Shown here one piece after another: positions 1 through 9,757 of a stretch of 9,757 nt of DNA. The translations under genes and the position numbers were made by a program. Origin of the DNA: Halobacteriales archaeon (lineage in GTDB: Archaea > Halobacteriota > Halobacteria > Halorutilales > JAHENH01); NCBI GenBank assembly GCA_018609935.1, contig JAHENH010000113.1:1-9757 (forward strand), written 5' to 3'. The notes below the pieces were generated by a model, which worked only from the letters and a program-made list of their open reading frames with translations, did not search any database and had not been told where the DNA came from. The stretch's first letter is position 1. The number at the start of each line of letters is the position of its first letter.

Positions 1-3000
1 AACACGATTAGCTTGATAAGCCATCATATTAAGAGCCCAGTTATCTTCATCATCAGATGCTATACTAGTAAGTATGGAGGCCATCACTGCTGTAGCAATA
101 AGATATGAGGATTCAACTAAATTCCTCATCATATTAGCCTTTTCTCTCTGATTTAACTCATTCCATCTCTTTCTTATCTCAAATTGTCCTTCTTTAAAAT
201 CTTTTCTTAAGATATTGAAGAATCTTGCAGCAGTTCTATAATATCCTTCTGTCCAAGCCTCTCCTTCCTCATTATATTGAAGCTTACCGAATCTTCTATT
301 ATATCCAGGTCTCATAAATTTCCTGAACATAAGAGCAAGCCTTCCTAATGCATATTGCTGAATAACTGACTTATCAGTATCATTATAGATACCATGCAGT
401 CTCTTATTGATAAAATGTTGCTTTCTCTTGAATCTTCTTATATCCTCTTCAGTTAATGCTTCTCCATTCTCTTCTTCAAACCACATCCTTCCTATATTAT
501 TTCCTTTGTCATCTTTAGGAACTACTTTAGTAAGTCCTTCTTCAAATTTAAGCTCATTTCCTTCTACATATGTAGCATCTGTAAGAGATTTAATATTACC
601 GTCCTTATCTTTCACTTGAGCTTCTTGAGCTAAGGCAAAGGAAAGTCTGGTCTGCAGGAAATGCTCACCTGCATGGTTGATAAAAAATAGAGAAGATGTC
701 TTGAACATATGTCCCAGCCAAGTCTTTCTATTTGTATTCATGTTATAAGTATTAGCTTTAAAATCTTGTAGGACATCCATTCTATCCCCCCAAGCTGACA
801 TCCAGTCAGTTCTATAATTATCTCCCATTTGAGCCATTGACTTAGGAGCTTCCTTGCTATAAAGCTTAGATGCTTCTCTGAGAGATTTTCTACTGATAAA
901 TTCAGATGCTACCGACTCTGTATGAAGCATAGCATTACCGAACCCAATGTTGGCAAAACCAGCATATACGTTAAGAGCTAAGTTATTGATAGCTGTATAG
1001 GACCCTAGAGTATCTAAGAATTTAGCTTGATCTATATTACTACCAAAAAGACCTCCTTCATCTAATTTCTTCTCACCATAGACTACCATTTCAAGGTATT
1101 TAGAAAGTCTCTGATAAACTTGAGACTCATTACCAGGCTTAGTCTCATAAGATCCTTCGTTCTCTACACCTATAGCTTGCTTAACATTTTTACCTGCTGA
1201 AGTTTTCTTAAAGGATTGACCTGCTATTATATCTTTGCCTAATTCAAGCATATCCACATGCTTGTTCATATAATTATTATTATATGCCATAGAAGCAAAG
1301 AGAGACATACTTGTAATGATATCTGTAGAGAGATCTCTCTTATTTTCTAGTTCTATAGTATGTTGCCTTGGAACCATCTTATATTCCTTTCCTTCCTCAT
1401 CGGTGAGTCTATATATACTACCAAAATCCTCTTCTTCCTCAGTCTTAACAAATCCTTCCTTAAATTCAGATCCCATAGTCTTCACTCCCTTATCTTTTAA
1501 CCTCTCCATCATATCCTTTCTATGCTGAGGAGCTAAGAAATAGGTCTCTTTATCACCCATCTTAAATTTAGGAGGGAGAAGCTTATTATATGCTTCATAC
1601 ATTTCTTTGATCTGATCTATGAATTCCTTCTTATCTTGACTTAATTTCTCATAATCCTTATTCTTATATTTCTCTTTCTTAGGAATAGCAAGATCCCTCA
1701 CATATTTTTTAGTACCATCATTTTGGGCTATAATATTGTCAGCTAACCAATCATTGAATTCTACCTCAGATAATTCTTCTTTCTTTTTATCAATAAGTTG
1801 GCCAGCATTAGGATTAGGATCCTGATTTTCTTCAAACCATTTAGCTGCCTCTCTACCATAATCTTTTTTCACTTGATCTGATAAAGCAGTTAAAAATGTA
1901 GTTCTATTAGGAGCTCCTACTTTATTAAAGTACTCCTTCATTCCCTCTTTATTCTTATTAGCCTCATACCATCTGGATACAGCTCTTAGGTCTCCATTTC
2001 TTATAGCTTGTGACTCTTTCTTATCTTGGGGAAGACCATATTTTTCATTAAGATCTCCAAAGAATTTCTCCTTAGCTTTCTCGAATTCATGCCAATTCAC
2101 ATCAGAAATAATATTACCTGTAAGCTCACCTTCTGAATCTCTCTCGTAAGAAAAACTGAGGTCTTTAATCCCCTTATCTACAAGATCTTTTTGCATTTTA
2201 AGAAGTTTATTCCTCTCCTTTAATGCTTGATCCTGAGCTTTATCTATATCATCTTTAACTGCTTTATCGATTATCTTTAATATATCATTATCAGCCTCCG
2301 CCATAGAATCAGCCCATCTTGTCACTATCCCTATATCATCTAAGGGAGTATCAGGATCTAATATACCTTCTACATTGGCTTCTGGATTAGTGGTATATTT
2401 CTTAAGATATCCTTTAGAGAATATTTCTCTTCCCACTCTATCATATTCCTGCTTAATAACATCAACTCTATCAGAGAGCTCTTTGATCCAGTCTAAGATC
2501 TTTTCTTTTCTCTTCTCATCTATTTGGTCATTAGATCTTAATTCTGATCTCACAGTGCCTATAATACCTTCATAACTCCCTATATAATTCTTAATATCTC
2601 TAAGCCTAGAAGCAAGCCTGAACATATCGGGATTCCCACTATTGATCTCCTCTTCTATCTCTTTGAATTTACCCTTCTTCTCCTCTTTATTAGGATTCCT
2701 ATTACCTACACGTTTACTCCCTATAATATTCTCTGTCTCTTTATTGATCTCTCTTAAAAATCTTATATTTCCTTTGAGATATTCCTCTACATTCTTATCT
2801 TCTACTAGATCCTTTAGTAGACTCTCTTCTCTTTCAAAGAATTTCTTAGATCCAACTCCTTTAGCTTTATTGACCTTTATCTTTTTATCAATAGCTTTGA
2901 TAGATTTATCCAGGGATTTCTCAAAGTCCACTAAAGGCTTATTTTCTTCCTCTGCATTCATCCCCTCATTATCTCCCTGTCTGTAAAATTTGCCCTTTTT

Positions 3001-4002
3001 TAATATGGATGTATCGAATCCTTCTAATTCTCCTGAGATTATTTTTTCAGCAACTCCACCGAACACTCTATCTATTTCACTTTGTATCTCTTTATCATTT
3101 CCTCTTTTAAAGAATGAGAGGAATCTATTCCATATTCTCCTCATAAGACCCACCATCTTATCAGAAGTATCTCCTTTCTCAAATTCTTTTATAATTTTCT
3201 CTCCTAGTAATTTCCCTGCTGTCTCCTTAGCTATTTTATCCTCTCTTACATTCCCGTTCTCATCCTGATAGTCTTTATTATTCTTATATTTCTCATATAC
3301 TTCATTATACTCAGAAGATTCTCTGGCCAGGTCCAACATTCTTTGGACCATCTTATTATCCTTCATCATCTCTATTAAGAAATGAGAAGTCTCTTCAGGA
3401 AGGGTCATTTTATCTCTCTTATTCTGAGCTACCTGAATAATATGTCTATAAGTATCAGCTACACCAAGCACTTCATTACCCATTCTATCTTTAAGGGTTT
3501 CATGAGCCTCAACTGATACTCCCAACTCTGACATTCTCTTCTTTAAAAATGCATCTAATTCATCATTAGCTTCTTCAGGATCTTTATCAGGAGTTCTATA
3601 AGCTTTATCTATAGTTAATTTAACAGCATAGAGTTCCTGTCCTCCCTCTCCTATTCTTTTCACAGGTTCAGCCTGATACTGGCTACCTACAAGCTCATTC
3701 TTATTAAGGTCTCTGGCTTTCTCTCTAGCCTTACTGAATTCAGTATAATTAGATCTGGGATAGAATTCTTCTTGAGTGATAGTATCTAGTCTGAGACCTA
3801 ACTTTAATTCAGCTTTACCTAGTTCACTAAGTTTCTTTGATTTGGTCTTCTCAGTAGTTCCCTTTGTTACAGAGTCAGTTACTAATTGTCCTCCTTTAGG
3901 ACCATAGTAAAGATGCCACTGACCATAAGCTCTTTCTTCACCAAGGTCTCTTACTAATCTTTTCCACTGATCTGAACTCTTATTTGGACAATATAATGCC
4001 AT
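1..4002 (-). CDS. Giant crAss-like phage protein of unknown function (3' partial)
   Basis: An ATG at 4000-4002 opens 1334 codons with no stop to the left edge, so the C-terminus is missing. It begins MALYCPNKSSDQWKRLV, followed by a GEERAY helix. This opening, and F-S-K-A-R-E-K-A-R-D-L-N at 89-100, are features I recall from giant proteins beside crAss-like RNAP genes. Residues 143-260 are helical with LPEETSHF (201-208). About 340-620 is Lys/Glu-rich and coiled-coil-like. A YFLAPQHRKDMMERL helix lies at 821-835. A conserved C-terminal block spans 980-1270: ALNVYAGFANIGFGN (1009-1023), GEHFLQTRLSFALA (1112-1125), LHGIYN (1202-1207), ALMFRKFMRPGYNRRFGK (1223-1240) and EGYYRTA (1252-1258). One hydrophobic segment follows at 1296-1316. 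I cannot assign an enzyme activity. A virion cargo or DNA-entry role fits its size, its place after the polymerase gene and its near lack of Cys (only C5), but is inference. Codon use matches gene B. Confidence 0.85.
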   Translation of the reverse strand, partial: MALYCPNKSSDQWKRLVRDLGEERAYGQWHLYYGPKGGQLVTDSVTKGTTEKTKSKKLSELGKAELKLGLRLDTITQEEFYPRSNYTEFSKAREKARDLNKNELVGSQYQAEPVKRIGEGGQELYAVKLTIDKAYRTPDKDPEEANDELDAFLKKRMSELGVSVEAHETLKDRMGNEVLGVADTYRHIIQVAQNKRDKMTLPEETSHFLIEMMKDNKMVQRMLDLARESSEYNEVYEKYKNNKDYQDENGNVREDKIAKETAGKLLGEKIIKEFEKGDTSDKMVGLMRRIWNRFLSFFKRGNDKEIQSEIDRVFGGVAEKIISGELEGFDTSILKKGKFYRQGDNEGMNAEEENKPLVDFEKSLDKSIKAIDKKIKVNKAKGVGSKKFFEREESLLKDLVEDKNVEEYLKGNIRFLREINKETENIIGSKRVGNRNPNKEEKKGKFKEIEEEINSGNPDMFRLASRLRDIKNYIGSYEGIIGTVRSELRSNDQIDEKRKEKILDWIKELSDRVDVIKQEYDRVGREIFSKGYLKKYTTNPEANVEGILDPDTPLDDIGIVTRWADSMAEADNDILKIIDKAVKDDIDKAQDQALKERNKLLKMQKDLVDKGIKDLSFSYERDSEGELTGNIISDVNWHEFEKAKEKFFGDLNEKYGLPQDKKESQAIRNGDLRAVSRWYEANKNKEGMKEYFNKVGAPNRTTFLTALSDQVKKDYGREAAKWFEENQDPNPNAGQLIDKKKEELSEVEFNDWLADNIIAQNDGTKKYVRDLAIPKKEKYKNKDYEKLSQDKKEFIDQIKEMYEAYNKLLPPKFKMGDKETYFLAPQHRKDMMERLKDKGVKTMGSEFKEGFVKTEEEEDFGSIYRLTDEEGKEYKMVPRQHTIELENKRDLSTDIITSMSLFASMAYNNNYMNKHVDMLELGKDIIAGQSFKKTSAGKNVKQAIGVENEGSYETKPGNESQVYQRLSKYLEMVVYGEKKLDEGGLFGSNIDQAKFLDTLGSYTAINNLALNVYAGFANIGFGNAMLHTESVASEFISRKSLREASKLYSKEAPKSMAQMGDNYRTDWMSAWGDRMDVLQDFKANTYNMNTNRKTWLGHMFKTSSLFFINHAGEHFLQTRLSFALAQEAQVKDKDGNIKSLTDATYVEGNELKFEEGLTKVVPKDDKGNNIGRMWFEEENGEALTEEDIRRFKRKQHFINKRLHGIYNDTDKSVIQQYALGRLALMFRKFMRPGYNRRFGKLQYNEEGEAWTEGYYRTAARFFNILRKDFKEGQFEIRKRWNELNQREKANMMRNLVESSYLIATAVMASILTSIASDDEDNWALNMMAYQANRV
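55..117 (-). other. Predicted hydrophobic (possible membrane) segment
   Basis: Residues 1296-1316 of the downstream protein (VESSYLIATAVMASILTSIA and onward) form about 20 largely uncharged, hydrophobic residues. They are followed directly by an acidic run (SDDED) and preceded by a basic helix (RKRWNELNQREKANMMR). It is the only such stretch I saw in either protein. It could insert in the host membrane during entry or be a buried helix. The rest of the protein lies off the edge, so more segments may follow. Confidence 0.45.
193..1065 (-). other. Conserved C-terminal block of the giant protein
   Basis: Residues about 980-1270 form the most recognisable part of the downstream protein, rich in aromatic, Gly and Arg residues, unlike the Lys/Glu-rich middle. 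Key stretches are the ALN-x4-GFAN-x-GFGN segment (1009-1023), the helix GEHFLQTRLSFALA (1112-1125), LHGIYN (1202-1207) and MFRKFMRPGYNRRFGK (1225-1240). The Arg-Phe-Gly element loosely recalls the PLxRFG polyvalent phage proteins, but the surrounding residues do not match well enough to claim membership. The function is unknown. Confidence 0.5.
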
Positions 4003-4025
4003 TATGAACAATAATTTTTAAGTAT
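3988..4025 (-). promoter_or_regulatory. Stop-start overlap and translation initiation region of the downstream gene
   Basis: On the coding strand the junction reads TCATAATGGC. The TAA stop of the upstream gene (4002-4004) and the ATG start of the downstream gene (4000-4002) share one base. The 20 bases before the ATG are A/T-rich with no GGAGG-like element. This fits termination-reinitiation coupling, or the Shine-Dalgarno-independent starts common in Bacteroidetes and their phages. The start lies inside a short inverted repeat, ATAATG-G-CATTAT (3993-4005). No promoter is apparent between the genes. Confidence 0.75.
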
Positions 4026-7000
4026 ATAACCTACAGTTCTCTCTAGATCTTTTTTCTGCAATATATTTTCTATAGTCTCTCCTGTATCTCTCTCAAACTG
4101 ATCCAATTCTTCATTTGTTAGCTGCTTATTTGGATCTCCTGATGCTCTGATCACTCCTCTATTTAGACTTATTCTAGATTCAGTATTTCCTATTACTTCC
4201 TCTTCTTGAGTAAATGATTCTTTTTGAGTTTCTTCTTCTCCTTTTTCGTTGATAATCTCATTTAGAGCGTCTGCATGTGAATAATAATTTTTTCCTTGAT
4301 TCATATAAAGTAAGGATTTTCCTGATCTTAGAGATTGATTCAACTCAGAATCAGTATTATTTATTTGATCTAATATCCACTCTCTTTTCTCAGGAAGAGT
4401 TTCTGTATATTTTTCTCCTTTCAACCAATCTTTGTAGGTTTTTCCTGCTTCTTCTTTCCTTTGATTTTCTAACATGGAATTATTACCTACAAGAATTAAA
4501 TCTGGATTTTTAGCAGCTACAGAAGGTGTACCAGTAAACGGATTTCCAAAAGTATATGGTTCTCTGTTATTTACTCTCATTGTATTTATACCCTTCTTAC
4601 TAAATACTTTTCCATCTTTAAGTTCACTATAAGAGATATACTGAACCTTATTGGATGATGTATCTTGCACATTTTCACCTTCTTCCTTTCTATTTACACT
4701 TTCATCTACCTTTTCAATAGATTTTCTTATTTGATCCGTACTCATTTGCTCCATATTATCATTGGGTAGTATATGTACTTCATCCTCAGCTCTTGTCATA
4801 GCAGTATAAAGCCATCTGGCATTATTCCATGAAGGAGCTACATAAGATTGATCTATAAATACTTTATTCCATTGAGATCCCTGTGCTTTATGTGCAGTCG
4901 AAGCATATCCATAAGTTACTATTCCAGGACCTGACCATCGGATCTTTCCTTTTTTAGTCATATGAGTGAATTTCTCTACATTATAAGACCCTTTTAAACC
5001 CTGCTCTACTGATTTAGCAAGTTGAGCTCCATAGAGAGATGCTATAGGAAGATCTTTAGAGAGCAGTATATCTATATTCTCAGTATCAGATTTTCCCTCT
5101 TTCTTTACTTCCACATTAGCTTCGACAAAATTAATGGATTTGATATTATTGCCTAAACTTACTTGGACAGTAAATTCATCTCTATGCTCATTTATCTTCT
5201 GAACAGTGGCTAACTCAGAGTTATTTATATCTGCATTGGAAGCTCCCATTATTATCTCACCCTCCACTAAAGGATTGTTATCCACCTTATCTCCGAACTT
5301 AGCTCTTCTAGCTATGTTGTTGTACTTAACTTTATCCTTGTTAGTAGAAACGATCATTACAGAATCCTCATTATTGGAAATGGATTTCTTGAACTTATCA
5401 GATATTCTGTTTCTACTATCCTCTATTATTAGACTATCAGTGTTTTCATTAGGAATGATAGCCTTCTTATTCGTTCTTATAGCTGTTACCGTCTCTAGGA
5501 GAGTATTCTTACTCTGTCTCTTCACTTCAGCAAGTTCTGACCTATTTTCATTTGAGAATTCTCTATCTTTCCATTTAAACAGATCAGGATCTTTTCCTAC
5601 AGGTTCTAACTGGAAGCTATCTCCTACAAAGACTACCTTAGAATCATCAGGAAGATATTCCTTTATATCATTTAGCATATCCTCATCTATCATAGAGGAT
5701 TCATCTATAAGATATAAAGTATTCCCATCCATCTCATCAGGCTTCCATTCTCCTTTTTCATTAGGCTCTCCATATATTTCAGCATGGATAGTTGAAGGAG
5801 AAGGAACTTCACTTATCATCGAGGATAACTTATTGTCCAGCTTATCGGAGAGAACCTTAGCAGCTTTATGAGTTGGAGCTAGTATCTTAGGACTATAACC
5901 ATTATTAATTCCCTCTTTCAATATATTCTCTGCTACAGTAGTTTTTCCAGTTCCTGCATATCCTGAGAATAGATAGAATTTATCATTACCTTCAATAAAT
6001 TTCTGAACTTTATTAAGAGCCTCTTTCTGATCTTCTGTATAATCTATAGGCTCTTCTCTCATAGAGAGAATATTTCCATCCCTACCTTTCTTACTAGTCT
6101 CTTCTTTTTGTTCCGTATCTTCTTCAGATTCTGCTGCATTTGACATAGGCTCTGTCTCAAGATTCCCCTCATTATAATCAGGAGTTTTTATTTGAGGTTG
6201 TTCATCCACTTGAATATTATTCCTAGGGATAACACTTTCTGCTCCTGACCATTCTTTCATATGCCCAGGAATTCCATATTTATGGGTTATAGTATAGACA
6301 TATCCATTCTCTTCTTCTCTAGCAAAAGTGAATAAGTTTCCATTCTTAGAATCTAATATGAATTTAGAGGTCAATCCTCCTTTCTTTATTACAGTTCTAG
6401 GAGTCTTAGCATTCTTCCCATTAACTTTCCCTCTATCTAATACTTCTATATGTTCATCTCCTTCTTTAAATTTAGGAACTAACCTATTATCATCATAATT
6501 GTTTCTAAAGAATCTATCTACAAATGGAGAGAAATGATGTCTTCTATATTCTGATATAGTAAAGTCTTTAGCCTGCTGAATCTCTTTATCTAATAGATCT
6601 CTTAATCCTTCTTCTCTTTCAAGCTTAGATATAAAAGATACAGGAATTAGATTCCCAAAGCTATTCTTACCGAATTGAAGACCATTCTTAATGAAATTAT
6701 ATTTAACAAGATCTTCTCCTAATTGTTGATATTCTGGAGTATTAAGAAGATGCTCCCAATTCTTAATAATAAGTTCCTGTTCAGATTCACTCAGATTTCC
6801 TGTATTAGAGAATATGATCTCTTTAGAGTTCTTAGCACCTGAATACTTAGGATCACTAAATGTTCTTACTTTAAGTCTACTTATAAGAGCATTATTAGAG
6901 AGGGCACTATTACTTTCATTGATCTTTCTGATCTGATCAGGAAGCTCATTAAGTACTCTTTGTCTCTCTTCTAAAGGCATATCAAAGAAAGAGTGTCCTG

Positions 7001-9757
7001 CCATTATATAAGAGAGAGCCTGTTGATGTATTTTATCTACATCATTAGGTCTCATTACTCCATTAAATTCTCTTTCTATTTCCTTCCTAATTCTCCTAAA
7101 TCCAGGAAGAGACCAAGGATAATACCCTTTCCAACCATTTCCATAATCTGATTCAGACTCAATATATTCGCTAGATATTATTTCCCCATCTTTATTTAGT
7201 CCATTAGTAAAAATATTATTTGGCTTAATAATACCTTCATTTATAAAGGCACTTACCATAGATGAATTATCGATAGTTGTGTCAGCATTCTCCCACATAT
7301 CAAATCCATCAAGCATCACAGTATTGGCTCTATCTATCTTTAATTCATTATCAGCAATAGTAGGTCCAATAGCTCCTGAAGCTGCATCAGCTTTACTTCC
7401 CTGTATCATTTCACTCAACTCTGCAGAAGCCTCTCTATAAATAGAGAATGTAGACATCACTTGGAAATTAAGCTCTAAGTTATCCTCTATATTTTTACCT
7501 ATATTATTCTTTAGTTTAGAGTTCTTTAATTGGAATACTTTAGTCGGCTCATAAGAATTTCTTCTATCTCTTATATCATTCAATACTTCTTCTGCTGCCT
7601 CACTAGCATTTATTCCTTGATTCACTTTTTTTACATATTCTTCTACAGCAGGCTGATTGATAAAGTTAATAGCTGTTTCCATTGGATAACCTGCTCTCAA
7701 GATAAATGCAGCTACATCAGCAGTTGCAGTATTAAGATTAAGTCCTCCTGCAACAGGCTCTTTTAAGTTGTCAACAGATGCTGCCAGAATAGAGGCTATA
7801 TTTTTAGAGATCCGTTCACTCCCATCAAATGTAAAAGTTTTATTAAACTGAGGATTATCATACCATTCATTCTCTGATATATCGTCAAATAGGACAGGTA
7901 TATTAGGACTAAGCTTAGAATATTGAGATAAAGCATGATGGGTGTTATGGTTAGCTGCAATACCTACTAGTTTTGCACCTGTCATTACTCGATCATACAT
8001 CTCTAGTTGAGTACTAGGTGAGAATATTCCTCTATCTTTTCCACTAGCCTTTTTCTTCCTTATCTCTTTCTCCATCTCTTTGAGATTCTCAAATCCTCCA
8101 GGCTCCATTAACTTATTAAATGTAGTGGAATTAGTGAGAATTTCATCGATCATCTCTATCATCCTATTATCTCTCTGCTCCTTACTATTCTCCGAGATAC
8201 TTTTATTAGTATCATATTTAATAGTATCTATAGTATAAAGCTTCTTAGTTCTTGCAAGCTCTGTATCATTTACCATCTCATGCACTCTCTCTTTGATATT
8301 TCTCTCACTAATAGATAGAGTAGATTCTTCAGAGGTCATGATATTTTTAAGAGCATTCTGATCTACTTCAAATCCTTCATCTTTTAGAGCTTTAGTTATA
8401 TTACCGTAATTCCTCCTCGTCTCAATATTAGGCATTAGAGTGAAGAGTTTATCAATATCAAAGTCATTATCGGTGATAGTGATAAATTCAGAAGGAAGAA
8501 GAATTGATTGAGGTGCTCCTTCAGGAAGGAATCCTTTTATCTTTACAGGGACAGATGAATACTTATCCTCATAAGGCATTGCATGAGCAATAGCTCTTCT
8601 AGCTTCATCAGAGATCATAGATTCATCTATATTACCTTCTGAATCCACAGGTTTAGCAATACTCTTATATTTCCAAGGAAGATAAGCTTCAAAGTGATCT
8701 ACACCTATTATCTTTCCATTTTCATCTCTTTTGAATTGGACATTCAGATTATCTCTGAATCCATATGCAGTTTGCTGAACAAGTTGCTCACCATTAATGG
8801 TCTGCTGGTTCACTCTATTCTTAAAAATAGAGTTAAGAAGCTGCTCAGTCCTCTTAGAATGGACAGGATTATAAAGCTCTACTCTGAATCTAGGATTACC
8901 ATTACTATCAGTCTCTATCTCTAGAGCTTTTCTCATCTCATCTCCGAACTCTCTATCTTCTACTTCCTCTAAGAGAGTATCTCTGAGTTTATATATATCA
9001 TCAAATTGGGATTTGAGTTCCCTGAATGCTTCTCTAACATTCTCAGCTACCAGATCTTCAAATTCACTTCTTATATTCTCAGCTCCTTTAGTGGATTCTG
9101 TTTCAATATCAGAGGGAAGATCTGATGTTATAATTCTTCTTATCTGACTGTTAAATGTTATCTCTTCTCCTTCACCATGGACAGGCACTTCATTTTGAAT
9201 TCTAAGTGTCTTATTAGGAATATTATGGATCTGAGGCTCTACATTATTATCTATATCCTCTAATGAATGGACATTATATAGTCCTTGCTTAACTGCTGAT
9301 TCAAAATGGAGAGCATGGATATTTTTATTTTCCATCCACTTCAACATCTTATCAAGCTTACTATCCTCTCCATTAATCTTAGCAAGTTGAGGAAGTAATA
9401 CTGCCTCAGAGTTTTTATGCTGAAATGGAACTTTTCTATGATTATTACTTCCCTCTATTTTTTCAAATCCCGTATTAAATGGTTTAAGGGTTTGGAATAT
9501 AAGATCTATATCAGCCTCTAGAGCTTCTCCTCTTTTAGCTCTATTATAGGCATTCTCCATCCTTTCATTCCATCTCCCGAATCCTACCATCATTCTCTTA
9601 TATTCATCAAGAGTGATAAAGCTCTGAGCATCTGTCTCATTAACTTTTTCATCCACTCCAAATGCTTTAGCTACATCTTCAGCATAATCTCTAGAGAATC
9701 CATTATTAATAAGTCCTTCTTTCACTTCCTCATATATACTCTCTTCCCCACCTAACT
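4002..9757 (-). CDS. Giant RNA polymerase-helicase fusion protein of a crAss-like phage (5' partial)
   Basis: This frame encodes 1907 residues counted from a GTG at 9725, plus ten more open codons up to the window edge. The true start probably lies outside, because the GTG has no usable ribosome site and no upstream stop. Residue numbers here count from that GTG. Residues about 98-700 look like a single-chain RNA polymerase. KNSE (104-107) and ESAVKQG (142-148) may supply the lysines of the first barrel, and DFDID (421-425) would bind catalytic Mg in the second. Conserved blocks follow at 566-600 and 641-692 (AASVDNLKEPVAG) and at 1002-1031. A Ser/Glu/Thr-rich linker (about 1182-1217) leads to an SF1B helicase (1226-1660), a DUF4326-like domain (1693-1827) and a charged tail. 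The helicase is certain. The polymerase assignment rests on motif recognition. The likely role is transcription of early phage genes by a packaged enzyme, which is inferred. The only Cys is residue 1906. The stop overlaps the next start, so translation is probably coupled. Confidence 0.85.
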   Translation of the reverse strand, partial: LGGEESIYEEVKEGLINNGFSRDYAEDVAKAFGVDEKVNETDAQSFITLDEYKRMMVGFGRWNERMENAYNRAKRGEALEADIDLIFQTLKPFNTGFEKIEGSNNHRKVPFQHKNSEAVLLPQLAKINGEDSKLDKMLKWMENKNIHALHFESAVKQGLYNVHSLEDIDNNVEPQIHNIPNKTLRIQNEVPVHGEGEEITFNSQIRRIITSDLPSDIETESTKGAENIRSEFEDLVAENVREAFRELKSQFDDIYKLRDTLLEEVEDREFGDEMRKALEIETDSNGNPRFRVELYNPVHSKRTEQLLNSIFKNRVNQQTINGEQLVQQTAYGFRDNLNVQFKRDENGKIIGVDHFEAYLPWKYKSIAKPVDSEGNIDESMISDEARRAIAHAMPYEDKYSSVPVKIKGFLPEGAPQSILLPSEFITITDNDFDIDKLFTLMPNIETRRNYGNITKALKDEGFEVDQNALKNIMTSEESTLSISERNIKERVHEMVNDTELARTKKLYTIDTIKYDTNKSISENSKEQRDNRMIEMIDEILTNSTTFNKLMEPGGFENLKEMEKEIRKKKASGKDRGIFSPSTQLEMYDRVMTGAKLVGIAANHNTHHALSQYSKLSPNIPVLFDDISENEWYDNPQFNKTFTFDGSERISKNIASILAASVDNLKEPVAGGLNLNTATADVAAFILRAGYPMETAINFINQPAVEEYVKKVNQGINASEAAEEVLNDIRDRRNSYEPTKVFQLKNSKLKNNIGKNIEDNLELNFQVMSTFSIYREASAELSEMIQGSKADAASGAIGPTIADNELKIDRANTVMLDGFDMWENADTTIDNSSMVSAFINEGIIKPNNIFTNGLNKDGEIISSEYIESESDYGNGWKGYYPWSLPGFRRIRKEIEREFNGVMRPNDVDKIHQQALSYIMAGHSFFDMPLEERQRVLNELPDQIRKINESNSALSNNALISRLKVRTFSDPKYSGAKNSKEIIFSNTGNLSESEQELIIKNWEHLLNTPEYQQLGEDLVKYNFIKNGLQFGKNSFGNLIPVSFISKLEREEGLRDLLDKEIQQAKDFTISEYRRHHFSPFVDRFFRNNYDDNRLVPKFKEGDEHIEVLDRGKVNGKNAKTPRTVIKKGGLTSKFILDSKNGNLFTFAREEENGYVYTITHKYGIPGHMKEWSGAESVIPRNNIQVDEQPQIKTPDYNEGNLETEPMSNAAESEEDTEQKEETSKKGRDGNILSMREEPIDYTEDQKEALNKVQKFIEGNDKFYLFSGYAGTGKTTVAENILKEGINNGYSPKILAPTHKAAKVLSDKLDNKLSSMISEVPSPSTIHAEIYGEPNEKGEWKPDEMDGNTLYLIDESSMIDEDMLNDIKEYLPDDSKVVFVGDSFQLEPVGKDPDLFKWKDREFSNENRSELAEVKRQSKNTLLETVTAIRTNKKAIIPNENTDSLIIEDSRNRISDKFKKSISNNEDSVMIVSTNKDKVKYNNIARRAKFGDKVDNNPLVEGEIIMGASNADINNSELATVQKINEHRDEFTVQVSLGNNIKSINFVEANVEVKKEGKSDTENIDILLSKDLPIASLYGAQLAKSVEQGLKGSYNVEKFTHMTKKGKIRWSGPGIVTYGYASTAHKAQGSQWNKVFIDQSYVAPSWNNARWLYTAMTRAEDEVHILPNDNMEQMSTDQIRKSIEKVDESVNRKEEGENVQDTSSNKVQYISYSELKDGKVFSKKGINTMRVNNREPYTFGNPFTGTPSVAAKNPDLILVGNNSMLENQRKEEAGKTYKDWLKGEKYTETLPEKREWILDQINNTDSELNQSLRSGKSLLYMNQGKNYYSHADALNEIINEKGEEETQKESFTQEEEVIGNTESRISLNRGVIRASGDPNKQLTNEELDQFERDTGETIENILQKKDLERTVGYILKNYCS
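4245..4649 (-). other. DUF4326-like domain without cysteines
   Basis: This covers residues about 1693-1827 and lies directly behind the helicase. The order matches DUF4326 as I recall it: an N-terminal strand pair ending in MRVNN, FGNPF (1726-1730), an Ala-rich helix with a Tyr-x3-Leu pattern (TYKDWLKGE, 1763-1771), a later helix REWILDQIN (1781-1789), then a GKSLLY strand (1802-1807) and SHADALNEIIN (1816-1826). In the usual family the last part carries a CWC-like pair and CHxDxL. Here these positions read YMN and SHAD, so the His and Asp are kept and the cysteines are gone. The domain's biochemical activity is not known to me. The assignment is by pattern only. Confidence 0.5.
4746..6050 (-). 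other. SF1B (RecD/Dda/Pif1-like) helicase domain
   Basis: This covers residues about 1226-1660 of the giant protein and shows the full ATP-dependent 5'-3' helicase signature in order. It begins with YTEDQKEAL (1229-1237, Q-motif region). Walker A is GYAGTGKTT (1255-1263, K1261, bases 5937-5963), and motif Ia is APTHKAAK (1283-1290). Walker B is LIDESSMID (1339-1347), motif III is GDSFQLEPVG (1368-1377) and motif IV is VKRQ (1401-1404, R1403). Motif V is GYASTAHKAQGSQW (1606-1619), and motif VI is YTAMTRAED (1640-1648, arginine finger R1645). Every catalytic residue is intact, so an active enzyme is expected. The DESSM and THKAQG forms favour the RecD2/Dda branch over UvrD/Rep. Covalent linkage to a polymerase-like module suggests it opens or translocates template DNA during transcription or genome entry, but that is inference. 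Confidence 0.93.
6075..6182 (-). other. Ser/Glu/Thr-rich interdomain linker
   Basis: Residues about 1182-1217 (NEGNLETEPMSNAAESEEDT and onward) are rich in Glu, Ser, Thr, Asn and Lys with almost no hydrophobic residues. The stretch separates the polymerase-like module from the helicase. A flexible tether is the simplest reading, and a proteolytic processing site is possible. A similar acidic stretch (about 1827-1845) separates the DUF4326-like domain from the final tail. This is seen directly as composition, and the role is inferred. Confidence 0.6.
7626..9434 (-). other. RNA polymerase-like catalytic region with DFDID motif
   Basis: This covers residues about 98-700 of the giant protein. 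DFDID (residues 421-425, bases 8451-8465) follows a block with the order seen before the NADFDGD loop of RNAP beta': a Pro-containing turn (AMPYEDKYSS, 382-391), a beta segment (VPVKIKGF, 392-399), then LLPSEF (409-414) and the acidic loop. crAss-like phage RNAPs such as phi14:2 gp66 are established as single-chain two-barrel enzymes with a DxDxD active site. The earlier lysines K104 and K146 are candidates for the basic residues of the first barrel. Where relatives I recall have Tyr-Arg-Ile-Pro, this protein reads His-Ala-Met-Pro (381-384), so an expected Arg may be missing. An EF-hand-like loop is the main alternative and is less likely. The assignment is inference from motifs without alignment. 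Confidence 0.65.

What the first reader, a model, noticed from the sequence alone, without database searches (positions are those of the whole stretch)
4746..9434. RNA polymerase-like active site and complete SF1B helicase in one polypeptide
DFDID (residues 421-425) sits in a segment resembling the catalytic barrel of RNAP beta' and crAss-like virion RNAPs. The same unbroken frame carries a fully intact RecD/Dda-type helicase at 1226-1660. A polymerase tied to its own 5'-3' motor could open template DNA without sigma-type factors, pull the genome into the cell, or clear host proteins ahead of transcription. I do not know whether this fusion is already documented in other crAss-like groups.
Basis: partly seen in the sequence, partly recalled or inferred. 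Interest (0 to 1): 0.72.

Follow-up and report, generated by a model that had tools for sequence, protein, structure and literature searches.

The report
Phage RNA polymerase fused to helicase
A crAss-like phage makes one giant protein that joins the RNA polymerase such phages carry in their particles to a complete DNA-unwinding motor, and related phages seem to have made or lost this join many times, which suggests that the motor helps the polymerase start or run on double-stranded DNA.

Summary

The fusion recurs. Of 175 RNAP frames examined (not a random sample), 27 carry a helicase domain, window and one duplicate contig included; 26 of 27 keep motif I. It is mostly C-terminal, N-terminal in four contigs. 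Presence or absence changes 17 times on the RNAP tree. The window's helicase kin sit on distant RNAPs (AU p 3e-5). Of 34 records without the fusion, 2 have such a helicase anywhere. Deposited phage cr118_1 has the fusion, annotated only as 'exonuclease V' or 'DNA helicase'.

Likely role: an injected polymerase with its own 5'-3' motor; the coupling is inferred. Against: the window's copy alone lacks a near-invariant arginine (present in 157 of 158 rows).

The parts
4002..9755 (-). Unbroken frame encoding the RNAP-helicase polypeptide (1917 codons in the window; 5' end lies outside)
6276..9746 (-). crAss-like virion RNA polymerase core, residues 4-1160
9111..9488 (-). Likely beta-type barrel region, residues 90-215, with conserved K91, K114, K156 and Q204 (barrel assignment inferred)
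   Evidence: K114 145/145, K156 143/145, K91 142/145, Q204 144/146 covered loci; strands in model
8412..8804 (-). Likely beta'-type double-psi barrel region, residues 318-448
8451..8465 (-). DFDID metal-binding motif, residues 431-435
   Evidence: aligned with DFDID of 6vr4; D431, D433, D435 in 160 of 160 covered loci (loci partly fetched by that motif); 73 of 75 proteins of a search that did not require it
8580..8582 (-). Ala392 at a position that is Arg in 157 of 158 aligned rows (RxP motif); the window is the sole exception
6048..6278 (-). Linker, residues about 1160-1236, low confidence in both models (pLDDT under 50 at 1160-1190 and at the first 35 residues of the helicase model)
4674..6146 (-). 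SF1B (Dda/RecD-type) helicase, residues 1204-1694
   Evidence: HMM; Pfam; PHROG 325 Dda-like helicase E 1.7e-71; T4 Dda 3upu E 1.4e-23
5940..5963 (-). Helicase motif I, GYAGTGKT
5691..5705 (-). Helicase motif II, DESSM
4788..4808 (-). Helicase motif VI, YTAMTRA
4005..4658 (-). C-terminal extension, residues 1700-1917; residues about 1704-1842 recur after RNAP in P0107 and P0109
   Evidence: E 1.5e-17, 1.6e-17; weaker in P0099, P0005, P0101; no Pfam match
1..4011 (-). Downstream gene, homologue of crAss001 gp49 'putative RNA-polymerase subunit'; its frame can overlap the fusion gene by up to 10 bases, depending on its start; runs off the window
   Evidence: 29-33% identity in the listed rows, E about 1e-102 to 1e-105

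Best explanation
This is the main transcription gene of a crAss-like phage. It encodes a two-barrel virion RNA polymerase of the phi14:2 gp66 / crAss001 gp50 kind, to whose C-terminus a Dda-type SF1B helicase is tethered by a flexible linker. Shown here: both folds (by model), the helicase motifs, the metal-binding triad, and gene order. Inferred from kin: the protein is packaged in the virion and injected, as crAss001 gp50, gp49 and gp47 were found in virions by mass spectrometry (PMC10172136, passages). Inferred mechanism: SF1B helicases move 5' to 3' on single-stranded DNA (family knowledge). On the non-template strand that is the direction in which the polymerase travels, so the motor can melt or hold open DNA and clear bound proteins in front of the polymerase without a sigma factor. 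Motion of the tethered motor might also help pull in the genome.
For: Domain identity. Same fusion in other contigs: 20 of 163 proteins; 26 frames, counting the window and one duplicate contig; of 80 loci fetched by the helicase, 17 hold an RNAP frame and 16 have both in one frame; several are near-copies; P0076. The helicase is rarely encoded apart from the RNAP: 2 of 34 records without the fusion have one anywhere; of 14 records with the fusion, one has a second strong copy. Motif I is kept in 26 of 27 joined helicases. Recurrence: 17 presence/absence changes on the RNAP tree, 16 forced by its well-supported branches, at both termini; two helicase lineages. A motor kept active and kept joined to the RNAP in many lineages fits functional coupling. 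N4 virion RNAP transcribes denatured but not native N4 DNA in vitro (PMC12633501, preprint, passage), so phage virion RNAPs can need help with duplex DNA.
Against: No activity or virion data for any fused protein were found here. 113 of 139 loci whose state could be read lack an intact helicase, one of them (L131) with a decayed one, and none of the 75 proteins nearest to the polymerase part carries one, so the RNAP works without it. The window copy lacks the near-invariant Arg392 and has Asp for Gly at 429, so this polymerase may be altered or impaired. By strict patterns only 18 of 27 joined helicases show all five motifs; 7 miss one, L145 is cut by the contig end, L131 has lost four. The helicase may sit at either end, which also fits loose delivery rather than precise coupling. 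Strand choice by the motor is assumed.
Confidence: 0.55

Rival explanations
1. Delivery fusion: the helicase is joined to the RNAP only so that it is packaged and injected; inside the cell it acts on its own, for instance at DNA ends, against host nucleases or in early replication. The polymerase is the carrier.
For: The helicase is found at either end of the RNAP. In 19 of 23 C-terminal fusions a HExxH (zincin-like) motif lies between RNAP and helicase and could cut them apart. Other domains sit around the RNAP in the same chains, for example the C-terminal extension. Polyvalent phage proteins of this many-domain kind are proposed to be co-injected (PMC5512222, passages). Among phage records the listed matches to the helicase are mostly stand-alone Dda-like helicases of T4-type phages.
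Against: If delivery were all, the motor should also turn up in other cargo genes or as a free gene; it was found elsewhere in only 2 of 34 records without the fusion and as a second strong copy in 1 of 14 with it. The window chain, as far as it is seen, has no HExxH.
Confidence: 0.3
2. The helicase is a replication helicase that became joined to a late-expressed gene and serves replication, with no link to early transcription.
For: Stand-alone Dda-like helicases lie near DNA polymerase genes in crAss-like phage cr127_1 and in Erwinia phage S6.
Against: Records with the fusion seldom have another copy and records without it seldom have any copy, so it does not look like a core replication gene that moved. 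The kin of the carrier gene, gp50, is a virion protein (PMC10172136, passages).
Confidence: 0.1
3. The fusion in this window is an assembly error that joins two genes.
For: Reads cannot be inspected here; the window's nearest RNAP kin lack the helicase.
Against: Same order in one frame in many separate contigs, with a large overlapping or adjoining gene after it that in five of seven such contigs matches the window's second gene; no composition break.
Confidence: 0.02
4. The polymerase part of this copy has lost or changed its activity and the helicase is now the working part.
For: Ala at the position of an Arg found in 157 of 158 rows; Asp for a Gly found in 156 of 158. In cellular RNAPs the corresponding RxP arginine contacts the NTP sugar (recalled).
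Against: The metal triad, K114, K156, Q204 and D662 are intact; the window deviates in 3 of 25 conserved columns, and 10 of 147 well-covered rows, itself included, deviate in three or four.
Confidence: 0.08

Closest known systems
phi14:2 gp66 virion RNA polymerase (PDB 6vr4) and crAss001 gp50
   Different: No helicase of this kind anywhere in the crAss001 record (L008), and only polymerase residues matched 6vr4; the window copy lacks the RxP arginine
uncultured phage cr118_1 gp14 (NC_055872.1, about 4946 aa, annotated 'exonuclease V')
   Same: RNAP (frame residues 2769-3846) followed by an SF1B helicase (4428-4932) in one chain
   Different: Placed in Suoliviridae; RNAP and helicase only distantly related to the window's; neither deposited name mentions a polymerase
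T4 Dda / RecD2 / Pif1 (SF1B helicases)
   Same: Fold and motifs; T4 Dda is the top structural match (E 1.4e-23)
   Different: Known as separate replication or repair enzymes (recalled), not joined to a polymerase
QDE-1 and RDR2
   Different: Eukaryotic RNA-silencing enzymes, not virion proteins (recalled)
N4-type virion RNAP and P23-45 tape-measure RNAP
   Same: Virion-borne RNAPs in giant chains; PMC10770324 (Discussion passage) says that virion RNAPs of crAss-like and N4-related phages are joined to large proteins of unknown function
   Different: The N4 enzyme is of another polymerase family (recalled); in the P23-45 case the partner is the tape measure, not a helicase (PMC10770324, passages)
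Polyvalent proteins (Iyer 2017, PMC5512222)
   Same: Giant multidomain phage proteins, some with helicases and peptidases, thought to be injected
   Different: The passages shown name SWI2/SNF2 and UvrD-like helicases, not an RNAP joined to a Dda-type helicase

Membership tests
crAss-like virion RNAP (gp66/gp50 family) | DxDxD metal-binding motif | tested here: met
   DFDID 431-435 aligned with gp66 DFDID
crAss-like virion RNAP (gp66/gp50 family) | Two-barrel single-chain fold like 6vr4 | tested here: met
crAss-like virion RNAP (gp66/gp50 family) | Conserved lysines of the beta-type barrel region | tested here: met
   K114 and K156 present; 145/145 and 143/145 covered loci. Their catalytic role is inferred
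crAss-like virion RNAP (gp66/gp50 family) | Arginine of the RxP motif (157 of 158 rows here) | tested here: not met
   Ala392 in the window. A conserved residue of the family, not a feature by which the family was named
crAss-like virion RNAP (gp66/gp50 family) | Placed upstream of a gp49-like gene, as in crAss001 | tested here: met
   window 1-4011 matches crAss001 gp49
crAss-like virion RNAP (gp66/gp50 family) | Packaged in the virion and active as RNAP | not testable with these tools
   known for kin only (PMC10172136 passages; PMC10136315 passages)
SF1B helicase (Dda/RecD/Pif1) | Motifs I, II, III, V, VI | tested here: met
SF1B helicase (Dda/RecD/Pif1) | Fold | tested here: met
   T4 Dda TM 0.70 by target length, E 1.4e-23
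SF1B helicase (Dda/RecD/Pif1) | 5' to 3' movement on single-stranded DNA | not testable with these tools
   assumed from the family
Polyvalent proteins | LPD domains and shared principal domains of that class | not tested
   only passages of PMC5512222 were read

The most novel reading that the evidence does not exclude
Crassvirales have repeatedly turned their injected two-barrel RNA polymerase into a self-driven machine by joining it to an SF1B motor from at least two helicase lineages and at either end of the polymerase. The motor runs on the non-template strand in the direction of transcription and does the DNA opening that sigma-type factors do elsewhere. The same solution arose again in a second, very divergent DxDGD polymerase-like family (L172, L173, L177, L180, L188 and others).
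Probability: 0.35. Interest if true: 0.82.

Novelty: new variant of a known kind. Interest (0 to 1): 0.62.

Why it matters
The partners fused to virion RNA polymerases of crAss-like and N4-related phages are described as large proteins of unknown function (PMC10770324, passage). Here one partner is a complete DNA motor, and its repeated gain or loss across crAss-like phages gives natural pairs of polymerases with and without it. That makes a long-open question testable: how an injected polymerase without sigma-type factors opens duplex DNA and whether transcription drives genome entry. It also shows that annotation hides the polymerase: cr118_1 gp14 is called 'exonuclease V' or 'DNA helicase'.

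Tried and rejected
Assembly artefact: rejected because the same order recurs in many contigs. A unique fusion: rejected by the same calls; the first scan of viral contigs with the single sequence found nothing and only alignments reached the kin. One shared fusion event for window and its closest helicase kin: the RNAP data reject window + L167, L168, L169, L171 as one clade (AU p 3.3e-5; the group came from the helicase scan, but I had already seen the tree); the helicase tree leaves the window next to, not inside, that cluster. A relocated core replication helicase: not supported. A fixed cut between domains by a zincin: HExxH lies between the domains in 19 of 23 C-terminal fusions but not in the window, L003, L079 or L144; not resolved. 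Identity of the C-terminal extension: no Pfam match at E up to 5; a likeness to DUF4326 is recalled only. Profile comparison of the DxDGD family with the crAss RNAP gave only probability 5-7%, E 0.005-0.008, around the VDN stretch and not at the DxDGD motif, and its C-terminal part has no match among solved structures, so its being an RNAP rests on the motif and is unproven. Close kin of the window in genome contigs: none. Literature: searches returned no paper; others returned papers, none of whose listings or passages that I saw describes this fusion. Figure 3 of PMC7886860 maps domains of the crAss transcription block and could not be seen, and the gp66 paper (PMC12127119) and PMC5736458 are not held, so I cannot say that the fusion is unpublished.

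Limits of counts: the 175 RNAP frames are not a random sample. The scan (alignment of mostly unfused proteins) kept the best 80 of 475 relatives and gave 4 fused loci of 80; the scan used an alignment of 14 fused proteins, kept the best 80 of 172 (78 loci) and gave 20 fused loci of 78 plus decayed L131. So 27 of 175 is no estimate of frequency. The patterns include one with DFD[IV]D, so motif conservation in loci is biased; the 75 proteins were found without it. The helicase HMM with default filters missed L131. L028/L156 are one contig, as are L061/L136; L156 and L136 were dropped from the tree and one further row for low coverage (162 to 159). 23 of 162 rows had a cut frame and no state. In the trees some rows called 'other' are fragments whose state is unknown or that proved fused later (P0076, L195); with those and the DxDGD rows left out, 58 of 84 rows remain and the helicase tree needs 7 label changes, only 3 of them forced by well-supported branches, against 7 forced and 6. 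see only proteins of 0.55-1.75 times the query length. The 34 and 14 records were picked by me for size and state; they may be fragments. One of the 34 (L013) had no readable state, and L195 among the 14 is a cut frame shown fused only. The three weak short extra matches (E 1e-5 to 1e-3) were not counted as copies.

Full report
Check of the observation. The minus-strand frame 4002-9755 has 1917 sense codons and one terminal stop. It is open at the window's high end, so its start lies outside. Pfam finds AAA_30 (E 3e-24) and UvrD_C_2 (E 6e-15) but nothing before residue 1239; PHROGs finds a Dda-like helicase (E 1.7e-71).

A result against an ordinary polymerase. In 25 columns conserved at 90% or more the window deviates at three: R392 to A, I393 to M, G429 to D. 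Arg392 is present in 157 of 158 rows and the window is the one exception; in a second set it is present in 69 of 70. Of 147 well-covered rows 10 have three or four deviations, so three is high but not unique. The arginine of the RxP motif contacts the NTP sugar in cellular enzymes (recalled), so substrate choice or rate may differ. The codon reads GCA.

The helicase. The model of residues 1190-1917 is confident over most of the helicase and poor in the linkers (mean pLDDT 75.7). T4 Dda is the top match (E 1.4e-23, TM 0.70 by target length), then DSH9, RecD, RecD2 and Pif1. Residues 1160-1236 form a low-confidence linker. After residue 1700 an extension follows whose first part recurs behind the RNAP in P0107 and P0109, in which no helicase was detected.

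Neighbour. Window 1-4011 is a homologue of crAss001 gp49. In seven contigs with kin of the window's helicase the RNAP-helicase frame is followed by a large overlapping or adjoining frame; five of these match window ORF2 at E 0.01 or better with filters off, none at E 1e-4 with default filters.

How common the fusion is. None of the 75 nearest polymerase homologues has the helicase. A search with the helicase part gave 88 proteins; over all 163 proteins 20 hold both domains, and P0076 is a further case, with the C-terminal half of the RNAP (E 6.7e-23). Scans of viral contigs with two alignments gave 158 loci; with the four named records there were 162 loci, of which 161 and the window hold RNAP frames, 175 in all. 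26 of these hold a helicase with default filters and 27 with filters off, counting the window and one duplicate contig. By scan: 4 of 80 loci, 20 of 78 (whose query was an alignment of fused proteins) plus decayed L131. By state: C-terminal 23, N-terminal 3, absent 113 (L131 among them), unknown 23, of 162. A scan with a helicase alignment gave 80 loci; 17 hold an RNAP frame and in 16 the two are in one frame. These 16 include near-copies and two contigs already seen, and one more N-terminal case, L212. Of the first ten listed, seven are fused to this RNAP and three belong to the DxDGD group. The deposited phage cr118_1 carries the fusion in one gene annotated 'exonuclease V' or 'DNA helicase'.

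Not a moved core gene. In 34 records where no fusion had been seen (79 kb or more) a helicase of this kind is found anywhere in 2; in 14 records with the fusion one has a second strong copy. The records may be fragments.

Evolution. On a FastTree of 159 polymerase rows presence or absence of the helicase changes 17 times; well-supported branches force 16 (136 rows with a state, L131 left out). Gain and loss cannot be told apart, many branches are long, and support values of this quick method are generous. The helicase tree splits fused copies over two lineages (95% support). It needs 14 label changes over three groups, but 7, of which 3 are forced, when rows of unknown state are left out. The window's polymerase belongs with the crAss001 group, whereas the polymerases joined to its near helicase kin (L167, L168, L169, L171) lie far away; holding them together is rejected (AU p 3.3e-5). 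So the join in the window is probably its own event, or the helicase moved between polymerases.

Mechanism. Kept motif I in 26 of 27 joined helicases, and all five motifs by strict pattern in 18 of 27, argue that ATPase activity matters. SF1B enzymes move 5' to 3' (family knowledge); on the non-template strand this is the polymerase's own direction. crAss001 gp50, gp49 and gp47 were detected in virions by mass spectrometry (PMC10172136, passages read), and the review PMC10136315 (passages read) reports in vitro activity of a phi14:2 virion RNAP and a role in rifampicin-resistant early transcription. N4's virion RNAP transcribes denatured but not native N4 DNA in vitro and is thought to rely on host gyrase (PMC12633501, preprint, passages read). 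I therefore favour a motor that opens duplex DNA for, or ahead of, the injected polymerase; the delivery reading remains a real rival.

Literature. PMC7886860 (section 7, part 1 of 2, and passages) says that the crAss transcription block consists of large multidomain proteins, names a PDDEXK domain in some, and lists an SF1 helicase among crAss genes in a figure legend; what I read does not mention a helicase joined to the RNAP, and its Figure 3 could not be seen. PMC10770324 (passages) notes virion RNAPs joined to large proteins of unknown function. The passages shown of PMC5512222, PMC12386605 and PMC11054128 do not describe the fusion. Searches returned no paper. I do not claim that it is unpublished.

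Noticed in passing
L172 3115-11373, L173 3711-12737, L175 2-8560, L177 4193-12223, L180 6923-15928, L185 6692-15697, L188 4599-14231; also P0077: Giant proteins with an SF1B helicase, then (in the six checked, all but L185 and P0077) HExxH, then a conserved DxDGD motif, preceded in the seven aligned loci by R[SQ]P[VI]; the motif is like that of RNAP beta' but is not hit by the crAss RNAP HMM. Candidate second family with polymerase and helicase in one chain.
   Followed up: partly
L131 frame 1679-16852, residues 4497-4945: A helicase domain joined to RNAP in which motifs I, II, V and VI are not found by pattern: a decayed copy seen only with filters off.
   Followed up: partly
NC_055872.1 16381-31221 (L003): cr118_1 gp14, an RNAP-helicase of about 4946 residues, is annotated 'exonuclease V' or 'DNA helicase' only.
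   Followed up: yes
Window residues 1704-1842; P0107 2183-2300; P0109 1980-2104: A domain without a Pfam match that recurs behind crAss-like RNAPs with or without the helicase; likeness to DUF4326 is recalled only.
   Followed up: partly
L088-L091, L093, L094, L098, L099, L111: The RNAP is split over two frames between the beta-type and beta'-type parts; in L088, L094, L098 and L099 the second frame also carries a HExxH motif and the helicase.
   Followed up: no
P0166 residues 9-75, P0169: Helicases close to the window's stand in 722-734 residue proteins; P0166 has a NADAR match (E 5.5e-10) before the helicase.
   Followed up: no
Flavobacterium phages FpV4, Fpv1 and kin (H101-H129): Proteins annotated 'virion structural protein' or 'structural protein' in several records match the RNAP part of P0082 (26-27% identity, E about 1e-72 to 1e-82): likely virion RNAPs.
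   Followed up: no
window 1-4011, protein residues about 200-215: The gp49-like protein has an EETSH stretch like a zincin motif that lacks its first histidine (seen by eye).
   Followed up: no
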